A DNA stretch of 64,000 nt from positions 133,256 to 197,255 of the forward strand of contig JACPMR010000015.1 of assembly GCA_016185945.1 (NCBI GenBank), given 5' to 3'. Below, in pieces: positions 2,545-50,198 of this stretch. Source of the stretch: Candidatus Woesearchaeota archaeon. GTDB lineage: Archaea; Nanobdellota; Nanobdellia; Woesearchaeales; GW2011-AR4. How positions within the stretch are numbered: position 1 is the first letter of the stretch; each line of letters opens with the position of its first letter. The translations under genes and the position numbers were made by a program. A model generated the notes under the pieces. That model worked only from the letters and a program-made list of their open reading frames with translations, was not told the origin of the DNA and ran no database searches.

Positions 2545-4951
2545 GAGATACATACGCAAGCATGGAAAAAAGCTCGGGCCTTATTATTATGAAAATGTCA
2601 GGAGCCCTGATGGAAAAGTAAAAACAGTTTACATTGGCACGAACCCTGAGCACCATCCGAAGCACAGGATAAGAAAACCGTTGTTTTTCTTGATTCTTGT
2701 TTTGATACTTATCTTAATTTTAGGCGGCTCATTGTTTGTAATGCAAAATAAAGCTTTTCTGGAAAAAAAAGTAGTCTTGCAACAGCCAGATTTCGAGATA
2801 GACCAGATTTTACTGAAGGTCCTTGTCAAGAGCGGCGAGTTTATTGAAAAACAAATAAGGGTTATGAATGTTGGAGGCAGCGCAACAGGAATTGATGTTC
2901 TTGCGCAGGACCTTGATGACATTATAAAAATTGATTCTCCCTCATTTTCAATCAAGCCAGGGCAGACAAAAATCGTCACTTTGAACTTCTCATCTTATTT
3001 GCCTGAGCAAAAAATTGAGCAGCAGCCCGGGATTTACATTGGCAAATTTTTAGTGAAGTCTGAAAAGGCGGCAAAGGATATTCCCATAGTTGTTGAGATT
3101 GAAACCAAGAATGTGCTGTTTGACATGAACCTTAACCCTGTTGCGCTTGAAAGAAGAGTAAAACAGGGAACTGACACAACAATTGAAGTAAGATTGTTCA
3201 ACCTTGAAAGCATAGAATCGCAGAATGTCGATGTGGAGTATTTTGTGAAGGACATGAACGGCAACACGATTGTGACAGAAAGCGAGACAGTTGTTGTAAG
3301 AACCCAAGCTTCGTTCTTCAAGACCATTTCGATACCCAAAAACCTCAAGCCAGGCCCTTATGTATTTGCTGCTCAGGCAAAGTTTGGCAATTCAATAGGA
3401 ACTGCAAGCTACCTGTTTGATGTTGTTGGTCCAGAGGAAGTGAGCTTTGTGCAGTTCTGCAAGAACAATGTATTATGCCTTGGACTCTCAATAGCCACTA
3501 TACTATTGCTGTTTGCATTGGTTGCGTACTTTTATTTCTTCATCGGAGCTTATTTGTACGACAAAATAACAGGGACTATCAAACTGCCAACAAAAAGGAA
3601 AGAAGCTGTAGCAGAGCCAAAAGAAAGCGTCTTTGAGTCAATAAAAAGCAGGCTTGATGAATGGAAAAGACGGATAGAGTTAAGGAAAGTGGAGAAGGAA
3701 AGACAAAAAGAAGAATTTGAACTTGGAAAGCAAAGAGAAGCAGAGCAAAGGCAAAGGGAGATTGGGATACAAAAGACTGAAGAGCAGAGAAAGAAGAAAT
3801 GGGAAGAATTAAAAGCCGGTGTAGAAGGAAAAAAGGAGCCTGAGGAAAAAATAAGCCCGGTAAGCAATCTCAAGAGCTTCTACCAGATATTAGGAAACCT
3901 GAAAAAAGCAATTGAAAGAAAAGACACTTCTAAAGTGGATGATTTTTACCTAGAAGCGAGAAACATGTATAACGGTCTTTCAGATCAAGGTAAAAGGGAT
4001 GTTTACGGTCAATTGGTGGTTTTGTACAAGCAAAGGAATGAGTTGATGGAAGAGTATGAGCAGCAAGAAAAATTAAGAAAAGGGGAAAAGGAGAAAAAAC
4101 AAAAAGAGGAAAACAAAAAGAGAGAAGAGATTGAAAAGGAGAGATTACGCCAGCAAAGGCGGGAGAAAGTAAAGGAGCTCTTCCACAAAATCGGACTTTA
4201 CAAGACGCCTGAAGAAAAAAGGCAGATTGCATTGCAAAAAGAAAGGGAAAGGCAAGAGAAGCTAAAAAAGGAGGAAGAGCTGAGAAAGCAGAAGGAAGCA
4301 CAGCAAAGGGAACTTGAGAGACAGAAACAGCTTGAGCAGAAAAGAAGGGAAGAAGATGAGAGAAAAAGAAAACAGGAAGAACTAAAACGCCAGAAAGAAC
4401 TGGAAAGGCAGAGGGTAGAAGAGGAAAGAATAAATCTAAAAGAGCTGGAAAGGCAAAAAAGGCAGGAGCTGAGGAAACAAAAGGAACTTGGAGCAGCGCA
4501 AAAAAAGGCCGAAGAGGAACTCAAAAAACAGAAAGAATTAGAAGCAAAGAAGATAAAAGAAGAAAAGGCAATAAAAAAAGAGATAAAAACACCAAAAGAG
4601 GAAGTATCAAAAAAGAGAAAGGACGAAGCAGAAGAGATTGAAGAGGCAATTAAAAGCCTAGAGTTATTTGAAACAAAAGAAGAGAAAAAGGCAGAGAAAA
4701 GTCCGAGCATAGTCGAAAGATTTTTGAAAAAAGAGAAAGAACCAGAAATACCAATCGGCAAAAGCAAGAAATTTCAGAGATGCTACAAAACTCTGAATGA
4801 GGTTAAAGATGCAATTTCAAAAGATAATATTGAAAAAGCCAAGAAATTTTATGTCGAGGCAAGAAAGCTTTATGTTGAGTTGGACTACAATGAAAGAAAG
4901 GATGTCTATAATGAGTTGATGGAGGTATTTAATAAATTAACGCAATATTAG
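2534..4951 (+). CDS. Two-TM protein with extracellular CARDB-like domain and long cytoplasmic coiled coil
   Basis: 805 residues from TTG 2534, chosen because GGGGTGG lies 6 nt upstream and an in-frame stop lies just before. The basic N-terminus (RYIRKHGKKLGPYYYE) precedes TM1 (about 49-70). An extracellular beta domain related to that of the 1084 gene follows, then TM2 (about 312-345). The rest is a Lys/Glu/Arg-rich coiled coil that must be cytoplasmic. It contains two copies of a helical unit, near residues 450-505 and 750-805, with the pattern L-x-x-AI-x-K-x-x-x-K-x-F-Y-x-EAR-x-x-Y, then KRDVY/RKDVYNEL. The same unit ends the protein at 28273. Likely a transmembrane scaffold; function not established. 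Confidence 0.8.
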   Translation: MAFKRYIRKHGKKLGPYYYENVRSPDGKVKTVYIGTNPEHHPKHRIRKPLFFLILVLILILILGGSLFVMQNKAFLEKKVVLQQPDFEIDQILLKVLVKSGEFIEKQIRVMNVGGSATGIDVLAQDLDDIIKIDSPSFSIKPGQTKIVTLNFSSYLPEQKIEQQPGIYIGKFLVKSEKAAKDIPIVVEIETKNVLFDMNLNPVALERRVKQGTDTTIEVRLFNLESIESQNVDVEYFVKDMNGNTIVTESETVVVRTQASFFKTISIPKNLKPGPYVFAAQAKFGNSIGTASYLFDVVGPEEVSFVQFCKNNVLCLGLSIATILLLFALVAYFYFFIGAYLYDKITGTIKLPTKRKEAVAEPKESVFESIKSRLDEWKRRIELRKVEKERQKEEFELGKQREAEQRQREIGIQKTEEQRKKKWEELKAGVEGKKEPEEKISPVSNLKSFYQILGNLKKAIERKDTSKVDDFYLEARNMYNGLSDQGKRDVYGQLVVLYKQRNELMEEYEQQEKLRKGEKEKKQKEENKKREEIEKERLRQQRREKVKELFHKIGLYKTPEEKRQIALQKERERQEKLKKEEELRKQKEAQQRELERQKQLEQKRREEDERKRKQEELKRQKELERQRVEEERINLKELERQKRQELRKQKELGAAQKKAEEELKKQKELEAKKIKEEKAIKKEIKTPKEEVSKKRKDEAEEIEEAIKSLELFETKEEKKAEKSPSIVERFLKKEKEPEIPIGKSKKFQRCYKTLNEVKDAISKDNIEKAKKFYVEARKLYVELDYNERKDVYNELMEVFNKLTQY

Positions 4952-6628: not shown

Positions 6629-7042
6629 ATGATCTACAAATTTATTGCTTACGGACATCCAAACATTCTAGCAACTCATAAAACAACGCTGGAGTTTACA
6701 AAAGACAAAGTATTAAGCTTGAAAGGAGACTGCATTGTTGGGGTTAATGCTGATTTTGATTTAAATGAACTGAAAAAGTTTATACGAAAATCTAAAAACA
6801 ATAAAGTTGCAATAAAAATTCAATCATCAAACAAAAAATTTCAAGAAACTATAAACGCACAGATTAATCCGAAATTCAACAGCAATAAGGAATTAGTCAT
6901 AAGAAAGACGGATTTCGTGTCTGAAAGGACTTTTGCAATAAAGTCGAATAAAGCTGCTTTTGAGGTGAATAGAGATTTGATTGAATTTTTGAAGGTGAAA
7001 GAAAACAGAATAATTATTGTTTTTAAAAATAAACAAATCTAA
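6629..7042 (+). CDS. DUF371 family protein
   Basis: 137 residues. The N-terminus AYGHPNILATHKTTLEFTKD followed by LKGDCIVGVNADFDL is the signature of archaeal DUF371: a conserved GHPN, a TLE strand and GDCIxGV. The family is nearly universal in archaea and small, but its function is unknown to me. Full length, no membrane segment. It follows the group B repeat and begins 4 nt after it, so its promoter may lie in or upstream of that repeat. Confidence 0.8.
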   Translation: MIYKFIAYGHPNILATHKTTLEFTKDKVLSLKGDCIVGVNADFDLNELKKFIRKSKNNKVAIKIQSSNKKFQETINAQINPKFNSNKELVIRKTDFVSERTFAIKSNKAAFEVNRDLIEFLKVKENRIIIVFKNKQI

Positions 7043-7074
7043 AAGAAAAGTAAATTAATTTTGGGTTATTGTGA

Positions 7075-7905
7075 CTATTTTATTTTGGTAAGCGTACTAT
7101 CTCTAACAACTTTTGAAGCTAATCTACCTACAATTTGGCTAATTAAGGCAGCATTTTGATGTGTGTTAAATGGCTTACGTAACGCCCATATAGCATAAGA
7201 ATAGGCTTGTCGCTGTAGATCTATCAAACCTATAGGCCATTGAGGTGCTTGTTCAAAATAACCTTTAAAGTAGCTTTCCAATAACTTTTGAAGATATATA
7301 ATTGCCTTATCATTTCCTCCAGATTGAAGAGCTGTCACTAAAATTGATGTTGGGAGAACTACAAGGTTCTTATGTGTCTCAACTTCCCCAAAAGATTCGA
7401 AATCAATTAATTTCATTTCAAGTGAGCCATTTGGAACCATCACATTTTCGTCTATAAAATCCTCGACCATTCTCACATTATACGAGGCGCCACTTCTCTC
7501 TATTGTGGCACCATGAACACTTCTTAATTTTCTTCCTAATTCCCTGCAGAGGCCTTCTAGTTGTGTGTATAATCTATTAAGTTGAATTTGAGAAACATTG
7601 GAATGAACATTGGCGCCTAACATACTTTGCAATGTTATTATACCCTTAACTAATTCGTCTAATCTTTGGTGATTGCTTAAGAATTCGTACTGTATAATTA
7701 ATCTATCTGGGTGTATGCCTATTCTTGCTGGAACAGGAAAAAAATGTCTTAGGAAATCGTATCCTGCTATCTCCCCTTGAAATCCAGTAACGTCCCTAGT
7801 TACAAATGGCTCAGTACTATAAAGGATAGGACTACAATATCTAACAAAACTTTTTTCAAACGCTCCCCCTTCTACTCTTGTATCATGTCTTGTTTGCGAA
7901 ACCAT
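7075..7905 (-). CDS. Diverged kinase-fold (aminoglycoside phosphotransferase-like) protein
   Basis: 276 residues, ATG 7905. No clear family, but the layout recalls a protein-kinase-like fold: GEIAGYDFL could supply the helix-C Glu, a helix with LGRKLRSVHG follows, then EDFIDENVMVPNG resembles the catalytic loop HGDxHPENVLV, and KLIDFESFG resembles the DFG/DFE metal site. No glycine-rich loop is obvious. If active it would phosphorylate a small molecule or protein. It is divergent from the TyrRS-receiver gene at 8239, sharing a 333-bp control region. Fold assignment is inference. Confidence 0.5.
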   Translation of the reverse strand: MVSQTRHDTRVEGGAFEKSFVRYCSPILYSTEPFVTRDVTGFQGEIAGYDFLRHFFPVPARIGIHPDRLIIQYEFLSNHQRLDELVKGIITLQSMLGANVHSNVSQIQLNRLYTQLEGLCRELGRKLRSVHGATIERSGASYNVRMVEDFIDENVMVPNGSLEMKLIDFESFGEVETHKNLVVLPTSILVTALQSGGNDKAIIYLQKLLESYFKGYFEQAPQWPIGLIDLQRQAYSYAIWALRKPFNTHQNAALISQIVGRLASKVVRDSTLTKIK

Positions 7906-8238
7906 TTTTATTTAAAATAGTTATTCTCATTGAATAACCATTATTTAAATCTTTTGTTTTTTAACTACTAAATAGTCAAAAATGAAAAATATTAACACAT
8001 AATTTCCATATTGAAAAATATATTTATTATTTATAGACTAAATAGAAAGATTTAAAAGTTAAATAATCCTTTATACACAAAAGGGGCATTGCAATTTAGG
8101 TTCTTAGGAAAAGTGAAAAGATGGTAGTTAGATGTAAGAATCAAAAGTGTCTAAAATAATCAGTGAATATTAGTACTAAAAAGTAACAAAAAAAGAAAAG
8201 CTTTTTAAACGAGGATAGGTAACTGCTAATAAGAAGAT
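7906..8238. promoter_or_regulatory. Divergent control region with dyad and ACTAAATAG repeats
   Basis: No gene. A perfect 7-bp dyad GTTATTC-TCATT-GAATAAC (7920-7938) lies 15 nt upstream of the leftward ATG and just downstream of a TATA-like TTTAAAT (about 7943-7950, other strand), where an operator would overlap the transcription start. ACTAAATAG occurs at 7967-7975 and 8037-8045, with a near copy at 8175-8183. For the rightward gene a TATA-like CTTTTTAAAC lies near 8201-8210, about 28 nt before ATG 8239, suggesting a leaderless mRNA. Confidence 0.45.
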
Positions 8239-10413
8239 ATGGTAAGGGAAAATGGTGTTAGTGCTGTAATAGGGGAGTTAAGTGCCATCAAAGGTACTGA
8301 TTATGTTAGCCTTCTTGCCGATAAATTTGGGCCCAGATTTGAAGAATTTGTTGGGGATTTGCAAAGACAACTTGCAGGGGCACTACCTCAAAAAGTAGTA
8401 CAAAGAACAACTGCAAGAGTTCTTGCTGGCTTAGAAACAATTGTTGATGATATGATTGCCCATGTTGGTGCTATAGAAAGAGGAATAGCATGGGTTAATT
8501 CTGATTTTGACTTATATGTAGCTTATGTTAGAATGAAGTCTAATGATGTCCCTGAATCACTAAGGCTCAATCCAAGCCAACATAATGTCAAGCTTGGCAT
8601 GGACCCTACGAATGATAGTCTACATTTAGGGCATTTGGTTCCTTTAAGAAAGCTTAATGATTTTGCAAGGCTTGGTTATAACACAGTTGCGCTACTTGGA
8701 ACTTTTACTGCAACTATTGGTGATCCAAGCGGCAGAAATGAGGCCAGACCACCTTTAAGCGAAGAAGAAGTAATGGCTTACGCAAGAAGATTTGAAGAGC
8801 AATTAAGAAGAATATTGGTTGACGGCATGCGAATAGAATATAACCATAAGTGGCTTACAGAGTTAACTGCTGCAGATTTAATTAGAATTGCAAATGGGGT
8901 GAATGCTAGCACCATTGATAGCAGGCCGGATTTTTTACAAAGAAAAAGAACAGGTGGGCGTATTTCTTTTGCAGAGTATATCTATCCACTACTTCAAGCG
9001 TATGATTCTGTGGCTCTAAGGGCATTATTTGAAATAGGCGGAACTGACCAAAAGAGAAACATGTTAGTTGGCAGGGATTTACAGCGTTATGTGGGACAAG
9101 AAGAGCAAGGTTGTATTGCAATGCCGTTGTTGCCCAGTATTGATGGAGTAACAAAAATGAGCAAAACAAATCCAGATACCTGCATATTTTTGAAGGACGA
9201 ACCCAAAGACATGTATGGCAAGCTGATGCGTATTCCTGACTTCTTGATGCCCCTATATTTTGAATTATTAACAGACAGAAGTATAAATGATATTGATGCG
9301 ATGAAAAGGGCACTTGGCGAGATGGGCCTCATCGCTCAACAAGGTGCAAAATTCGCAAGGCATTTTAAAATAGGTGATTTAACTGCCAGCAGAACTGAAT
9401 TGCTAAATATAATTAAGGAAGAAGAAAGAAGGTATACAGGTTCTGTTTTGATATACACCCCTGCTAGAATGAGGGGCATAGTAGAGCAGCTTGTCACAAA
9501 GCTTAGCGAGGACGGTTTCTTTGTCAGGACTGTTAGCGCATTACCAGAAGCGCAAAGAGAGTTTAGTAGCAGAGAGTATAGTGTTTTGATAATGGATTTG
9601 TCTGCTAAAGGAAATTATGATGTATTAAGAACGTTAAGAGGGATGAACAAGGACATTGGAGTTTTAGGCTTAAGAAGTGAAAATTCTAGATTAACAAATG
9701 GTTTGCAAACTCGTTTAATGAGTGATTTGAATGTGTCTCAAGTCTTTCCTGTCTTAAGCGAGCAAATGCCTGATGTGATAATAAGGGTTATTGGTTCAGT
9801 TTATAGAAATTTGCCAAGAGGCGAAAGTAGAAGAAAAGATGTAATAAGCGATTTGCAACCTTTGATATTGAGAATAGAAGGTGCACTAAAAAGATATGTT
9901 ACACAACGAGATTATTCAATTAGGGTAAGTGGAGGTAGATTTGAAATTTTAGGCAACAATGAAGAAACCCAAAAAGCAATAGACATGCTTAAGGGAACTG
10001 AAGATATGAGTGAAGGATACCATCCAATGATGTTAAAGCACGACCTTGCTTATAGAGTTGTAAGTCAACTTCATGGAGAAGATGCTACAAGGGCTGCAAG
10101 ACAACACTTTGAAACACAATATCAACGAAGAGGTTTGACTGAAGATTTACCAATCTATCAAGTTCCTCCGTCACTTGTTCAAGAGGGTGGTGTAAACATG
10201 CTTGATTTAGTAAGGGCTTTAAGAGAAGGTGTTAGTAACTCACAAATAAGAAGATGGAGTGATGAAGGCGCTTTGAGAATTAGGCTGCCAGAGGGGAATG
10301 ATTGGAAACGGGTAAAGTATGATCACGTCATACCAGTTTCAGATTTAGAGAGAGTTGCTGTGAAAATAGGAAGAGGGTCGTACAGACTTGCTTACCAACC
10401 GCCACAACAATAA
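8239..10413 (+). CDS. Tyrosyl-tRNA synthetase (TyrRS2-like) with receiver-like insertion and N-terminal extension
   Basis: 724 residues, far longer than the usual 400 or so. Residues 1-110 are an unfamiliar helical extension. Residues 115-390 are a class I TyrRS core: LGMDPTNDSLHLGH (HIGH motif at 129-132), GDPSGR, GGTDQ (267-271) and KMSKT (306-310, normally KMSKS). Residues 401-525 read like a CheY-type receiver with Asp452 at the end of strand 3, but strand 1 lacks the acidic pair. About 65 further residues lead to YHPMMLKHDLAYRVVSQLHG (593-612), the normal TyrRS linker, and an S4-like C-terminus (645-715). So the extra domain interrupts a synthetase. It may charge tRNA-Tyr under control, or have another role. 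Confidence 0.75.
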   Translation: MVRENGVSAVIGELSAIKGTDYVSLLADKFGPRFEEFVGDLQRQLAGALPQKVVQRTTARVLAGLETIVDDMIAHVGAIERGIAWVNSDFDLYVAYVRMKSNDVPESLRLNPSQHNVKLGMDPTNDSLHLGHLVPLRKLNDFARLGYNTVALLGTFTATIGDPSGRNEARPPLSEEEVMAYARRFEEQLRRILVDGMRIEYNHKWLTELTAADLIRIANGVNASTIDSRPDFLQRKRTGGRISFAEYIYPLLQAYDSVALRALFEIGGTDQKRNMLVGRDLQRYVGQEEQGCIAMPLLPSIDGVTKMSKTNPDTCIFLKDEPKDMYGKLMRIPDFLMPLYFELLTDRSINDIDAMKRALGEMGLIAQQGAKFARHFKIGDLTASRTELLNIIKEEERRYTGSVLIYTPARMRGIVEQLVTKLSEDGFFVRTVSALPEAQREFSSREYSVLIMDLSAKGNYDVLRTLRGMNKDIGVLGLRSENSRLTNGLQTRLMSDLNVSQVFPVLSEQMPDVIIRVIGSVYRNLPRGESRRKDVISDLQPLILRIEGALKRYVTQRDYSIRVSGGRFEILGNNEETQKAIDMLKGTEDMSEGYHPMMLKHDLAYRVVSQLHGEDATRAARQHFETQYQRRGLTEDLPIYQVPPSLVQEGGVNMLDLVRALREGVSNSQIRRWSDEGALRIRLPEGNDWKRVKYDHVIPVSDLERVAVKIGRGSYRLAYQPPQQ

Positions 10414-10471
10414 ATAATTTTAAATTCCAAATCATAAAGCATTTTAAAAGTTTGTCTTGCATTCTATTTCT

Positions 10472-10936
10472 CTAATGGCTTTGGGGTATAATAACCCTCC
10501 TCGTCTTCCCCACATAATTCAAAACCCTTCCATTAGAGTATTTTCCTGTTCCTAGAAAATCTTTGTTGTGCTTTAAAATAACAAAACCCTTGCAATCCTT
10601 GCATTCTTTTTGCAAATCTTCGCCTCTGAACCATTTCCTTGTTTCTTCTTCATTCAATTCAACAACATTCTTTGTCGCCTTTGTGCCTATAATCTGGCTT
10701 CCTTCTATGCTCAATCTTATTCCTAATTTATCATGCTCGCAAAAATACATTCCGACAGAGTTAAGGCGAAGCTTTGAAGTGTCAATTTTGGAAATGTCTT
10801 TGCTTATTACAAAAACTCGATTTTTGTTGTTTTTCAGGAAGCCATAATCTAACTTTATTTTAGCGCCCCATTGGTTTTCTATCATTTCAAGGATTTGTTT
10901 TATTTCTTTGTTGTTTAAGATTTTTAATTCTGGCAT
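10472..10936 (-). CDS. Standalone PUA-like RNA-binding protein (RsmF/NOL1 C-terminal type)
   Basis: 154 residues. The sequence runs LRLNSVGMYF, IRLSIEGSQIIG, ATKNVVELNEEE, W-x-x-GEDL, then GFVILKHNKDFLGTGK and LNYVGKTRRVI. This matches the PUA-like domain that ends RsmF/NOL1-type rRNA and tRNA methyltransferases, where it binds RNA, but no methyltransferase domain is attached. Archaeal genomes often encode it alone; it may assist a separate m5C methyltransferase or ribosome assembly. A Cys pair (KECKDCKG) is unusual. The next upstream gene on this strand is aIF5B. Confidence 0.75.
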   Translation of the reverse strand: MPELKILNNKEIKQILEMIENQWGAKIKLDYGFLKNNKNRVFVISKDISKIDTSKLRLNSVGMYFCEHDKLGIRLSIEGSQIIGTKATKNVVELNEEETRKWFRGEDLQKECKDCKGFVILKHNKDFLGTGKYSNGRVLNYVGKTRRVIIPQSH

Positions 10937-45587: not shown

Positions 45588-48044
45588 TTATTCCTGTTTA
45601 TGATTATTCTCCCTTGCAACCTTGACAGCACTTACAACCTTATCATTTGCTTCCAGTTTCATGATCCTGACACCTTGCGTATTCCTTCCAATTATAGAAA
45701 TATCTTTTGCCGGGACTCTTATGATAATTCCATTTTTGCTGATGAACAAAACATCGTCATTGCCTGTTACAGGGCAAATATTTACAACCTTGCCGTTTCT
45801 TTCACTGCATTGAATGTTGATGACTCCTGAGCCGCCCCTGTTAATCAGCCTGTACTCAGAAATCGGAGTTCTTTTGCCATAGCCGTTTTCTGTCACGCTG
45901 AGCAATGTCTTTTCATCGGATGCAACAACCATGCCGATGACTTCATCATTGTCCTTCAGAGTAATTCCTCTAACTCCTTGCGCAGACCTTCCAGTCGGCC
46001 TTACGCCTTTTTCTTCAAATCTAACTGCCAGCCCATTTTTGGTTGCAAGAATTATCTGCTGGTTGCCATCAGTAAGCTCAACATTTATCAGTTCATCCCC
46101 CTGCTCAAGAGTTATTGCAACAATTCCATGCCTTCTAGGATTGCTGTAGGCCATAAGCTCTGTTTTCTTGGCAGTGCCCTTTTTTGTTGCAAAAATCAAA
46201 TAATGCTGGTTGTCAAAATTTCTAACAGGTACAAAGGCAGTTACTATTTCATCGTTCTGAAGCTCGAGAAGATTAACAATAGCTTTGCCTCTTGCCTGTC
46301 TGCTCGCTTCTGGGATATTGTAAACCTTCAGCCAGTAAACCTTTCCCTTGTTTGTGAAGAATAAAATGTAAGAATGTGTGCTTGCAACAAAAATGTCCTT
46401 TACAATATCTTCGTCTTTTGTTGCCGCTGCAATTACTCCTTTGCCGCCGCGATGCTGTAATTTATACGTTTGAAGCGGAATTCTTTTAATGTAGCCGGAA
46501 TTTGTGATTGTTATCGCCATCTCCTCTTCCTTAATCAAGTCCTCTGTCTCAAGCTCGACGCTTTCAAGCTCTATGATTTGCGTTCTTCTTGCATCATTGT
46601 ATTTTTCTTTCAACTCCGATAATTCTTTCTTTATTATATCAAGTATTTTCTGCGGGTTTGACAATATTGATTTTAATTCCTCAATCAATTTTAGCAAATC
46701 AGAATGCTCCTGCCTGATCTTTTCCTGCTCAAGAGAGGTTAACCTCTGCAATCTCATTTCAAGGATTGCGACTGCCTGCTCATTTGTCAAGTTATAATTA
46801 TTAACTAATGCTTCCTTGGCAGTTTCGACTGATTTGCTTTCTTTAATTAGCTTAATTACATCATTTATATTTGCTAGTGCTATCATCAATCCTTCAAGAA
46901 TGTGGGCTCTTGTCTGCGCCTTGTTCAAGTCAAACAAGGTTCTTTTTCTTACAACATCTTTCCTATGCTCTATGTAATAGTGAATGAGCTGCTTTATGTT
47001 AAGAATTTTCGGCTCATTATTGACTAGAGCAAGCATTATTATGCCAAATGTTGTCTGCATTCTTGTGTGCTGGAACAATTGATTAAGCACAACATTAGAG
47101 TCTGCATCTTTTTTTAGTTCAATTAATATTCTTATGCCATGCCTATCGCTTTCATCCCTCAAGTCAGAAATTCCAACGATTTTCTTGTCCCTGACAAGAT
47201 CTGCCATTTCCTCAAGAAGCTCTGACTTGTTCACCATGAAAGGAATTTCATTGACAAGAATTATAGATTTGTTTTTGTCCTGCTGTACTGTTGTTTTTGC
47301 TCTTACAAGAATTTTGCCTCTTCCAGTAGAGTATGCTTCTTTAATGCCTGCTTTGCCGCAGATTAAGGCAGCTGTAGGAAAATCAGGACCTTGTATTATT
47401 TGCATTATTTCTTCTACGCCTATATTTGGATTGTTGATTTGTTTTATTGCAGCGTCTATGACTTCCCCAATGTTATGGGGTGGAATGTTTGTTGCCATTC
47501 CAACTGCGATTCCTGAACTGCCATTAATAAGGAGGTTTGGCAATTTGGAAGGCAAAACAATTGGCTCTGTTGTGCTGTTGTCAAAATTTGGGATAAAGCG
47601 AACTGTTTTCTTGTCAATGTCCTCAAGCATCTCTTCTGCTAGTTTTGTCAAGCGGCATTCTGTGTAACGCATTGCTGCGCTTGGATCTCCGTCAATTGAA
47701 CCCCAATTGCCTTGCCCATCTACAAGAGGATACCTCATTGAGAAGTCTTGCGCTAAACGGACTAGGGTGTCGTAAATAGCTGCATCAGAATGGGGGTGAA
47801 AACGAGCCATACAATTTCCTACGACATTTGCAGATTTTTTGAATGGTTTATTATGAAGCAAACCTATCTCCCACATCGTAAACAAAACACGCCTGTGAAC
47901 AGGTTTAAGTCCATCTCTAACATCAGGCAAAGCCCTGCCAACTATCACAGACATTGAGTAATCAAGATAGCTCTGCTTCATCTCATCCTGGATGATTCTA
48001 GGTACTATTCTCGTACCTAATTTTTGCTCATTTTCTGATGTCAT
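45588..48044 (-). CDS. gyrA: DNA gyrase subunit A
   Basis: 818 residues, full length. The catalytic Tyr127 is in RYTECRL. QDEMKQSYLDYSMSVIVGRALPDVRDGLKPVHRRVLF is near-invariant, as is VGNCMARFHPHSD (usually HPHGD). The GyrA box is QHRGGKG rather than QRRGGKG; its presence marks gyrase, able to wrap DNA and supercoil, rather than Topo IV. Six C-terminal blades follow. GyrB is not adjacent, unlike in many genomes. Gyrase in archaea derives from bacteria. ScpB lies nearby, so chromosome-structure genes cluster here. Confidence 0.96.
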   Translation of the reverse strand: MTSENEQKLGTRIVPRIIQDEMKQSYLDYSMSVIVGRALPDVRDGLKPVHRRVLFTMWEIGLLHNKPFKKSANVVGNCMARFHPHSDAAIYDTLVRLAQDFSMRYPLVDGQGNWGSIDGDPSAAMRYTECRLTKLAEEMLEDIDKKTVRFIPNFDNSTTEPIVLPSKLPNLLINGSSGIAVGMATNIPPHNIGEVIDAAIKQINNPNIGVEEIMQIIQGPDFPTAALICGKAGIKEAYSTGRGKILVRAKTTVQQDKNKSIILVNEIPFMVNKSELLEEMADLVRDKKIVGISDLRDESDRHGIRILIELKKDADSNVVLNQLFQHTRMQTTFGIIMLALVNNEPKILNIKQLIHYYIEHRKDVVRKRTLFDLNKAQTRAHILEGLMIALANINDVIKLIKESKSVETAKEALVNNYNLTNEQAVAILEMRLQRLTSLEQEKIRQEHSDLLKLIEELKSILSNPQKILDIIKKELSELKEKYNDARRTQIIELESVELETEDLIKEEEMAITITNSGYIKRIPLQTYKLQHRGGKGVIAAATKDEDIVKDIFVASTHSYILFFTNKGKVYWLKVYNIPEASRQARGKAIVNLLELQNDEIVTAFVPVRNFDNQHYLIFATKKGTAKKTELMAYSNPRRHGIVAITLEQGDELINVELTDGNQQIILATKNGLAVRFEEKGVRPTGRSAQGVRGITLKDNDEVIGMVVASDEKTLLSVTENGYGKRTPISEYRLINRGGSGVINIQCSERNGKVVNICPVTGNDDVLFISKNGIIIRVPAKDISIIGRNTQGVRIMKLEANDKVVSAVKVARENNHKQE

Positions 48045-48606: not shown

Positions 48607-49617
48607 TTAGAGCTCCTTGCTTTCTTCCTTTGGTTGGTTTTCTGGATGTAATATTTTCTCTGTCTTCTCTTCAACAATTTTTTCCATTTCTGGGGTTAGT
48701 TTAATGCCTTCTGATTTTCTTTTTGATTTTTTGACTTTAGTTTGTTGCCCTGTTTTTTGTTGGATTTCAGTTGATTGGGTTTCTGGAGGTTGCGTTGTTT
48801 CTGTTTCTTTAATATGCGTTTCTTCTTTTTTGGATTTTATTTTTTCCTCTTCCTCGACAATTTCCATCTCCCCTAATTTTTCCTTCTCGATAATCAGATT
48901 TCCTTCCTGCTGAAATTCTTCAGAAATCGTCTCTTTTGGCTTTGCTTCATACGTCTCCAGAGGAATTTCAAACTTTTCTTCTGATTCATCTAAAGTCTCT
49001 ATTTCCTTTTTTATCTTTTCATCCTCTTTTTTCAATTCTTCTGCCTTCTTTCGCTGCTCTTCCTTTATTTGTTCAACTTCCTCCTCTTTTTCCTTTATTG
49101 CCCTTGCTATGCTATCAAAGTCCCTAAACTGCTCCTTTAGCTTTTCTTCTGTCAAGTCAAAATACCTGAAAAATTTTTCAGTCAGTTTTATTAGGTTAGT
49201 TCTACCGTGTTTCTGCCTTGAAATGTAGCCAGATTTTTCCAGTTCGACAAGATGGTCGTATGCCTTATTTGTTCTGATTTTTATTAAATCTGATTGAAGA
49301 ATTGGATATTTGAATGCTATCACCGCCAAAGTTTCAAGCACGGTTTTTGTAAGCTCTGTTTCTGTCACAATCTTTCTGACAATAGGTATGAAATTATCCC
49401 TAACTGTGAACTTCCAGTAATCCCCCTCTTCAACAAGCATTAAGGATGACTGCTTGGCATCATACTCCTGCTGGAGTTCCTTAAGCGCATTAAGAATATC
49501 CTCTTTTCTGGAACGGCTAAGCTTGCTTATCTCATCCAAGCTTATCCTGTGCCCTGTTGAGAAAAGTATTGCTTCTACCTTGCTTTTCACGCTTGGCTTT
49601 TTTAGCTCTGCCATCAT
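48607..49617 (-). CDS. scpB: Segregation and condensation protein ScpB with charged tail
   Basis: 336 residues. Residues 1-170 match ScpB: KVEAILFSTGHRISLDEISKL, then ETELTKTVLETLAVIAFKYPILQSDLIKIR and YDHLVELEKSGYISRQKHGR, two winged helices that bind kleisin in SMC complexes. The remaining 165 residues are a Lys/Glu-rich tail without fold, ending TPEMEKIVEEKTEKIL, absent from ordinary ScpB. ATG overlaps the stop of the preceding gene. No ScpA or SMC lies in the window; the partner gene upstream may contribute. Confidence 0.9.
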   Translation of the reverse strand: MMAELKKPSVKSKVEAILFSTGHRISLDEISKLSRSRKEDILNALKELQQEYDAKQSSLMLVEEGDYWKFTVRDNFIPIVRKIVTETELTKTVLETLAVIAFKYPILQSDLIKIRTNKAYDHLVELEKSGYISRQKHGRTNLIKLTEKFFRYFDLTEEKLKEQFRDFDSIARAIKEKEEEVEQIKEEQRKKAEELKKEDEKIKKEIETLDESEEKFEIPLETYEAKPKETISEEFQQEGNLIIEKEKLGEMEIVEEEEKIKSKKEETHIKETETTQPPETQSTEIQQKTGQQTKVKKSKRKSEGIKLTPEMEKIVEEKTEKILHPENQPKEESKEL

Positions 49618-50198
49618 ACCAAAGTGTATATTTCGCCTTCTTTTTTAATTTTGTTTTCTTTAACGAGTTTATCGATAAAGATTTCAAGTTCTTTTTTGTC
49701 AACTCCTGTGACTTGTGAAAGCTGTTCCAGCGTGAGTTTGCTTACTTTTAGACAAATTAATACGGCATTATGCAGTATTGCGTTCATATTGTGCCTTAAA
49801 AAATCATTCTCTGCCTTTTGTTGCTTGACTATCATATCAACATTGTGCAATCTTGCCTGCAAGTCATTCAAAAAATTTGATAGCTCTGGGTTTGTCAATG
49901 TGAAGTTTTCAGGTTTTAAAACCTCCAGCGAGGAGGGCATGTAATCAAAGCAGAAAGCTATCAACTTTTTTGTGCCTTTTATAACCAAATCAAGCTCTAC
50001 AAACTTGCTCCAAAGCTTGCCTTGCTCTTTTGCCTCTGAATAGTCCTCATTCAAAATAACAAGCTCAGAATCCTGCTTGATATGCTCTATATACTCCTTT
50101 AATGAATCCTCCACATACTCTTTTGGCTTGCCCAGCACTTCAATTATAGTCCTGCACCTTATATGAGCGTGCTGCCCCTGCTTTTCTGCCTCTGCCAT
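49614..50198 (-). CDS. ScpB-linked conserved protein with C-terminal winged helix
   Basis: 194 residues. It starts MAEAEKQGQHAHIRCRTIIEVLGKPKEYVED, with a core KLWSKFVELDLVIKGTKKLIAFCFDYMPSSLEVLKPE, a coiled coil (about 105-140) and a winged-helix end (SKLTLEQLSQVTGVDKKELEIFIDKLVKENKIKKE). I recall similar proteins in other archaea but know no function. The last bases overlap the ScpB start, so they are cotranslated; a role in condensin or chromosome organisation is inference from linkage. Confidence 0.75.
   Translation of the reverse strand: MAEAEKQGQHAHIRCRTIIEVLGKPKEYVEDSLKEYIEHIKQDSELVILNEDYSEAKEQGKLWSKFVELDLVIKGTKKLIAFCFDYMPSSLEVLKPENFTLTNPELSNFLNDLQARLHNVDMIVKQQKAENDFLRHNMNAILHNAVLICLKVSKLTLEQLSQVTGVDKKELEIFIDKLVKENKIKKEGEIYTLV

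What the first reader, a model, noticed from the sequence alone, without database searches (positions are those of the whole stretch)
8239..10413. Tyrosyl-tRNA synthetase with a receiver-like domain inserted in the middle
HLGH, GGTDQ and KMSKT show a TyrRS2-type core, and the normal linker YHPMMLK...LHGEDA reappears about 210 residues later with an S4-like end. Between them sits a CheY-like alpha/beta domain with a strand-3 Asp452 (VLIMD) but no acidic pair, plus an extra 65 residues. A 110-residue N-terminal extension is also new to me. A synthetase interrupted by a (pseudo)receiver suggests phosphorylation- or ligand-controlled charging, or a stress sensor.
Basis: partly seen in the sequence, partly recalled or inferred. 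Interest (0 to 1): 0.78.

Follow-up and report, generated by a model that had tools for sequence, protein, structure and literature searches.

The report
Accessory tyrosyl-tRNA synthetase with regulatory-looking insert
A tiny archaeon carries, besides its normal enzyme for loading tyrosine onto tRNA, a second bacterial-type copy split in the middle by a domain that looks like a degenerate signalling switch; it sits in a two-gene cassette, which suggests a tyrosine-activating enzyme put under new control rather than an ordinary housekeeping gene.

Summary
Window 8239-10413 (+) is one uninterrupted 724-aa gene in a Woesearchaeota-type archaeal genome. Residues ~80-360 are an intact bacterial-type TyrRS core (TIGR00234, 1.6e-68) and the S4-like tail is recognisable. 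Between them lies a 233-residue insert (361-593): a CheY-like stretch with Asp453 (not 452) but without the acidic pair, Thr/Ser or Lys, then a small alpha/beta segment. The real N-terminal extension is ~70 residues. The receiver assignment is consistent but weak: sub-threshold profile hits that beat shuffles; AlphaFold confidence is too low to decide.

New: (1) the genome has its own archaeal TyrRS, so this copy is accessory. (2) The gene and a divergent neighbour (P0002, kinase-like motifs) form a 3.4-kb cassette between two genes that are adjacent in three same-genus genomes. (3) The only other TyrRS found with an insert there (843 aa, Woesearchaeota J091) is in the only other of 353 order genomes with a P0002 relative. 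(4) Both proteins sit on very long branches yet keep tyrosine-activation residues.

Best reading: a mobile, non-housekeeping TyrRS paralog whose tRNA-binding region is split by a pseudo-receiver-like module, probably controlled by ligand or partner. Backup-charging and RNA-binding rivals remain open.

The parts
8239..10413 (+). whole TyrRS-like gene (P0001, 724 aa)
8239..8448 (+). N-terminal extension, about residues 1-70, predicted helical
8584..9318 (+). TyrRS catalytic core and first part of the helical domain, residues 116-360 (HLGH 8623-8634, GGTDQ 9037-9051, KMSK 9154-9165)
9319..10017 (+). insert, residues 361-593, absent from ordinary TyrRSs
9439..9813 (+). receiver-like (pseudo-receiver) stretch, about residues 401-525; Asp453 at 9595-9597
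   Evidence: fold not confirmed
9904..10008 (+). small alpha/beta segment, residues 556-590, shared with the J091 relative
10018..10410 (+). resumed TyrRS C-terminal part: helix from YHPMMLK and S4-like tail
7075..7905 (-). P0002, divergent 276-aa partner gene with kinase-like motifs (D149, N154, D168)
7043..10471 (.). cassette holding both genes, absent from the same place in three same-genus genomes

Best explanation
An accessory, bacterial-type tyrosyl-tRNA synthetase paralog, probably horizontally acquired, that is not the cell's housekeeping TyrRS. Shown: it keeps the complete tyrosine/ATP-binding motif set and an S4-like tail; it has a ~70-residue N-terminal extension and a 233-residue insert in the helical tRNA-binding region; it sits with a divergent gene in one cassette that sister genomes lack. 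Inferred: the enzyme still makes Tyr-AMP, and the insert (a degenerate, phosphorylation-incompetent receiver plus a small alpha/beta module) gates tRNA access or binds another RNA or partner, so that tyrosine activation or transfer is controlled by a ligand or by the partner P0002 instead of running constitutively.
For: Separate archaeal TyrRS (L002, 356 aa) and TrpRS (L003) in the same genome. Core motifs and tyrosine-site residues kept in both P0001 and J091 despite very long branches (2.4 and 2.7 against a median of 0.45): the activation site is conserved while the rest drifts, as after a change of role. Both genes together fill a gap in an otherwise conserved neighbourhood. Only two insert-bearing TyrRSs were found in 353 order genomes, no further one in the phylum and class samples, and the same two genomes alone hold P0002 relatives. 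Receiver-like signal: response regulators lead or dominate the weak hits in several libraries, 9.6 bits against a shuffle maximum of 4.5, best of 666 background windows apart from a true receiver, hhalign P 5e-5. Established rule: bacterial TyrRS reads G1-C72 plus a V-arm, archaeal tRNA-Tyr has C1-G72 and no V-arm (PMC5370408), so a bacterial-type enzyme is not expected to charge the host tRNA-Tyr; no bacterial-type tRNA-Tyr was seen.
Against: Every receiver hit is below curated cut-offs, and the models do not confirm the fold (insert pLDDT about 35-54; single-sequence model 46, Foldseek top hits not receivers). J091 lacks the receiver-like part, so it cannot be essential to the family. In J091 the P0002 relative is on another contig, incomplete, and not shown to be next to the TyrRS-like gene. 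Many expected tRNA genes were not detected, so the absence of a matching tRNA-Tyr is weak. No expression or activity data.
Confidence: 0.5

Rival explanations
1. Plain backup TyrRS: it still charges tRNA-Tyr, like Bacillus TyrZ, and the extension and insert are lineage-specific decoration without a regulatory role.
For: All activation motifs and an S4-like tail are kept; a second TyrRS used under stress is known in bacteria (TyrZ, PMC9437257); about a dozen related genomes carry an ordinary bacterial-type TyrRS beside the archaeal one.
Against: Identity mismatch between bacterial TyrRS and archaeal tRNA-Tyr (PMC5370408); no bacterial-type tRNA-Tyr seen; branch far longer than those of the ordinary copies; insert splits the tRNA-binding helical region.
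Confidence: 0.2
2. RNA-binding protein of the CYT-18 sort: the TyrRS fold, extension and insert form a new RNA-binding surface used in splicing or RNA folding; aminoacylation is secondary.
For: Fungal mitochondrial TyrRSs became intron-splicing factors through an N-terminal helix and insertions (PMC4275181); the host has intron-bearing tRNA genes.
Against: No group I intron in the window or J091 contigs; the tRNA introns of archaea are removed by a protein endonuclease (established knowledge); the CYT-18 insertions are small and at other places; the kept tyrosine-activation residues would be unneeded.
Confidence: 0.12
3. Conflict module: P0002 is a kinase-like toxin or effector acting on translation and the TyrRS-like protein is its target mimic, antidote or insensitive replacement.
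For: Mobile two-gene cassette with sporadic distribution; kinase-like motifs in P0002; HipA kinases act on synthetases (PMC7029023, abstract listed).
Against: No match to PADLOC models for either gene; divergent rather than operon-like layout; P0002 has no profile-level kinase match; the two genes are not shown to be adjacent in J091.
Confidence: 0.12
4. The insert is not a receiver at all but some other alpha/beta domain, so no link with two-component signalling exists (this concerns the fold only and can be true together with any of the above).
For: Sub-threshold profile scores; the low-confidence model matches PII-like and NDK folds first; four of five active-site residues are missing.
Against: Receivers are the recurrent best hit in three libraries and the score exceeds all shuffles and nearly all real background proteins; strand-helix order fits.
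Confidence: 0.3

Closest known systems
Bacterial TyrRS of the T. thermophilus / A. baumannii type (1h3e, 6bqy; TIGR00234)
   Same: Catalytic core with all signature motifs, helical domain, S4-like tail
   Different: 233-residue insert, ~70-residue extension, archaeal host that has its own TyrRS, very long branch
[quoted passage not shown]
   Same: Rare extra class Ic synthetase in DPANN beside the canonical one, with insertions in the 'like' form, and associated with a gene of unknown family
   Different: Trp and archaeal-type there, Tyr and bacterial-type here; the ORF1 described there has HIGH/KMSKS-like motifs, P0002 has kinase-like ones; no receiver-like insert was mentioned in the passages read
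Neurospora CYT-18 mitochondrial TyrRS (PMC4275181)
   Same: Bacterial-type TyrRS given a new role by an N-terminal helical extension and insertions
   Different: Its inserts are small and elsewhere; no evidence of intron binding here
Pseudo-receiver domains (PMC12632262)
   Same: Receiver-like sequence that retains one Asp and lacks the rest of the active-site quintet
   Different: Known examples sit mostly in response regulators; none inside an aminoacyl-tRNA synthetase turned up in the papers searched

Membership tests
Tyrosyl-tRNA synthetase (bacterial type) | Sequence family score over the curated cut-off | tested here: met
   TIGR00234 231.7 bits against cut-off 113.8
Tyrosyl-tRNA synthetase (bacterial type) | HIGH, KMSKS and GGTDQ motifs and tyrosine-site Tyr/Gln/Asp | tested here: met
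   HLGH 129, KMSK 306, GGTDQ 267; Y249, Q253, D256 aligned with 1h3e
Tyrosyl-tRNA synthetase (bacterial type) | C-terminal S4-like domain | tested here: met
   By homology to TyrRS C-termini, 1e-4 to 9e-4; Pfam S4 not called in P0001 but called in the J091 relative
Tyrosyl-tRNA synthetase (bacterial type) | Uninterrupted helical tRNA-binding region | tested here: not met
   233-residue insert at 361-593; a usual rather than strictly defining feature
Tyrosyl-tRNA synthetase (bacterial type) | Charges tRNA-Tyr | not testable with these tools
   No biochemical data; matching tRNA-Tyr not found, tRNA set incomplete
Receiver domain (PF00072) | Profile score over the curated cut-off | tested here: not met
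   12.4 bits against 30.2
Receiver domain (PF00072) | (beta-alpha)5 fold | tested here: inconclusive
   Beta-alpha alternation in the right order but pLDDT below 55; Foldseek not supportive
Receiver domain (PF00072) | Phosphoacceptor Asp on strand 3 | tested here: met
   Asp453 in VLIMD
Receiver domain (PF00072) | Acidic pair, Thr/Ser and Lys of the active site | tested here: not met
   YTPA after strand 1; LRS after strand 4 (Thr/Ser position read as Arg, register uncertain by one residue); FPV at strand 5. By the definition in PMC12632262 it would at best be a pseudo-receiver
Kinase fold (APH/choline-kinase type), for P0002 | Recognised by family profiles | tested here: not met
   No Pfam, NCBIfam, PADLOC or PDB kinase match
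Kinase fold (APH/choline-kinase type), for P0002 | Catalytic loop D-x4-N followed by I-D-F-E | tested here: met
   D149, N154, D168; 8 of 20000 shuffles; the pattern was chosen after seeing the sequence
CYT-18-like splicing TyrRS | Group I intron substrate | tested here: inconclusive
   None in the window or J091 contigs; whole genome not searched for introns

The most novel reading that the evidence does not exclude
A mobile two-gene signalling module in DPANN archaea in which a tyrosine-activating synthetase is allosterically gated by a pseudo-receiver inserted in its tRNA-binding region, with a kinase-like partner: a synthetase turned into a switch or sensor.
Probability: 0.2. Interest if true: 0.78.

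Novelty: new variant of a known kind. Interest (0 to 1): 0.52.

Why it matters
If right, it is a case of a signalling-type domain spliced into an aminoacyl-tRNA synthetase, in organisms with small genomes that can ill afford spare synthetases, and it travels with a second gene. It would show a route by which tyrosine activation is placed under non-translational control, and it gives a defined, testable two-gene unit with a naturally empty site in sister genomes. It also extends the pattern of extra class Ic synthetases in DPANN/CPR (TrpRS-A) to TyrRS.

Tried and rejected
Chimeric assembly or frameshift: rejected. Viral or plasmid origin of the insert-bearing form: four viral-contig scans with the TyrRS-like proteins or their alignments, one with P0002, and plasmid and phage tblastn found no insert-bearing relative. 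A homologue of the insert elsewhere in the genome or class: none credible; one E 0.001 match on an unrelated 155-aa protein (L066) is taken as chance. Structured or tRNA-like RNA in the intergenic region: none. Terminal repeats of a transposon around the cassette: nothing beyond chance-like pairs. Similarity between P0002 and the J091 gene divergent from its TyrRS-like gene: none. Similarity between the P0001 insert and a stand-alone receiver on the J091 contig with the P0002 relative: none by BLASTP. Homology of the two N-terminal extensions: none detectable. Contigs C85 and C53 of J091 cannot be shown to join. A bacterial-type tRNA-Tyr near the J091 genes: the class II tRNA there is tRNA-Ser. 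Literature: no TyrRS with a receiver found.

Full report
What is there. The window lies in a 311-kb contig of a 1.5-Mb genome whose genes look archaeal (IF5B-like and Trm1-like genes next to the cassette, judged from their translations; archaeal TyrRS and TrpRS). Its only insert-bearing relative is in 'Candidatus Woesearchaeota archaeon J091', placed in the same order but another family. The gene at 8239-10413 is a single open frame of 724 codons. Its core scores 231.7 bits to TIGR00234 against a cut-off of 113.8 and aligns without large gaps to T. thermophilus TyrRS (1h3e) from residue 116 to 358. Aligned with ten DPANN TyrRSs of ordinary bacterial type and the J091 protein, it departs from the ordinary enzymes in two main places: about 70 extra residues at the N-terminus, and 233 residues (361-593) between the helix after 'ELLTD' and the helix beginning 'YHPMMLK'. 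The tail matches TyrRS C-termini.

The insert. Residues ~401-525 resemble receivers: Response_reg is the best Pfam match but at E 0.18, PmrA in NCBIfam at 0.0038, and response regulators lead the PDB list at 0.06. A receiver profile built from sequences of related archaea (loci) gives 9.6 bits; the best of 2000 shuffles (1505 scored) gives 4.5. Among 666 windows from 108 real proteins only a true receiver scores higher, with the next unrelated protein at 8.3. hhalign gives P 5e-5, probability 67%. So a receiver origin is more likely than not, but unproven. AlphaFold with 12 sequences gave a good core (mostly 70-91) but only about 35-54 over most of the insert; the stretch alone folded at 46 and Foldseek matched PII-like and NDK proteins rather than receivers. 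Of the five receiver active-site residues only the Asp is present; under the definition in PMC12632262 it would be a pseudo-receiver, for which ligand binding or dimerisation rather than Asp phosphorylation is the expected control. The small segment at 556-590 is shared with J091 (12 of 31 identical, pairwise E 0.006; for the whole insert 36 of 5000 shuffles reach the score), and the J091 insert occupies the same position but lacks the receiver-like part. This argues for an old insertion that was later enlarged or reduced.

Accessory status. The genome has one archaeal TyrRS and one archaeal TrpRS besides this gene. Of 15 genomes with a bacterial-type TyrRS, 14 also have the archaeal one. The tree puts P0001 and J091 on branches of 2.4 and 2.7 changes per site against a median of 0.45, joined weakly (67/72) with a long-branch warning; in the tree with an outgroup the data do not reject their union (p 0.30). 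Both keep HLGH, GGTDQ, KMSK and the tyrosine-site residues, though J091 has lost GDPSGR. Fast change around a conserved activation site is what one expects after a change of role, but it is not proof. Bacterial and archaeal tRNA-Tyr identities differ (PMC5370408), so charging of the host tRNA-Tyr is doubtful. No tRNA-Tyr of either type was among the 21 tRNA matches, several of which needed introns to be read, so this stays open.

The cassette. In three same-genus genomes the DUF371-like gene (6629-7042) and the PUA-like gene (10472-10936) are neighbours about 20-80 bp apart; in the window they are 3.4 kb apart, and exactly P0002 and the TyrRS-like gene fill the gap (sequences). They were thus gained together, or lost together in the sisters; gain is favoured by the near absence of both from the order. 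P0002 (276 aa) has no profile match. It carries 'EDFIDEN...LIDFES', the arrangement of the catalytic loop and DFE motif of APH/choline-kinase-type kinases (established knowledge). This occurs in none of the other 107 background proteins and in 8 of 20000 shuffles, but the pattern was chosen after seeing it. Of 353 genomes of the order, only J091 has a P0002 relative, the same genome that alone has the other insert-bearing TyrRS. If the two were independent, that coincidence has a chance of roughly 1 in 350 (inference). In J091 the P0002 relative is cut by a contig end and is not seen next to the TyrRS-like gene.

Interpretation. I commit to an accessory, mobile TyrRS paralog under new control, most likely through the insert and possibly with P0002 (0.5). 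Shown: anatomy, intact activation motifs, accessory status, cassette, co-occurrence. Inferred: tyrosine activation, gating, role of P0002. The rivals are a plain backup TyrRS (0.2), an RNA-binding role (0.12) and a conflict module (0.12); a non-receiver insert (0.3) is a separate question about the fold.

Novelty. It is a TyrRS by the membership tests, with an architecture for which I found no report in the searched papers. The closest precedents are TrpRS-A-like with ORF1 in DPANN/CPR (PMC5370408), CYT-18 (PMC4275181) and duplicated synthetases generally (PMC9437257). Hence 'new variant of a known kind'.

Noticed in passing
L027-L036, L040, L041 (genomes listed): About a dozen DPANN genomes, one with only 6 contigs, carry an ordinary ~410-aa bacterial-type TyrRS in addition to the archaeal TyrRS; what it charges is unclear.
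   Followed up: partly
L067 (G037:C53) 4296-4766 and 399-1457: The J091 contig with the P0002 relative also holds a receiver-like protein (Pfam E 2.4e-6) and a methyltransferase-like protein that matches the PADLOC mad2 model (1.2e-15).
   Followed up: partly
L042 124-1194 (-): A 356-aa protein without any family match lies divergent to the J091 TyrRS-like gene, in the slot that P0002 occupies in the window, but is not similar to P0002.
   Followed up: partly
L050-L060 (own genome): Many tRNA genes of this genome carry introns and only 21 tRNA matches were found by Rfam; tRNA-Tyr was not among them.
   Followed up: partly
G000:C13:16229-17424 (L070, L085): The genome has two full receivers close together, so genuine two-component parts exist in this archaeon.
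   Followed up: no
window 45588-48044 (-) and 48607-50198 (-): A gyrase A-like gene and ScpB/ScpA-like genes of bacterial flavour lie in this archaeal window (judged by reading the translations only).
   Followed up: no
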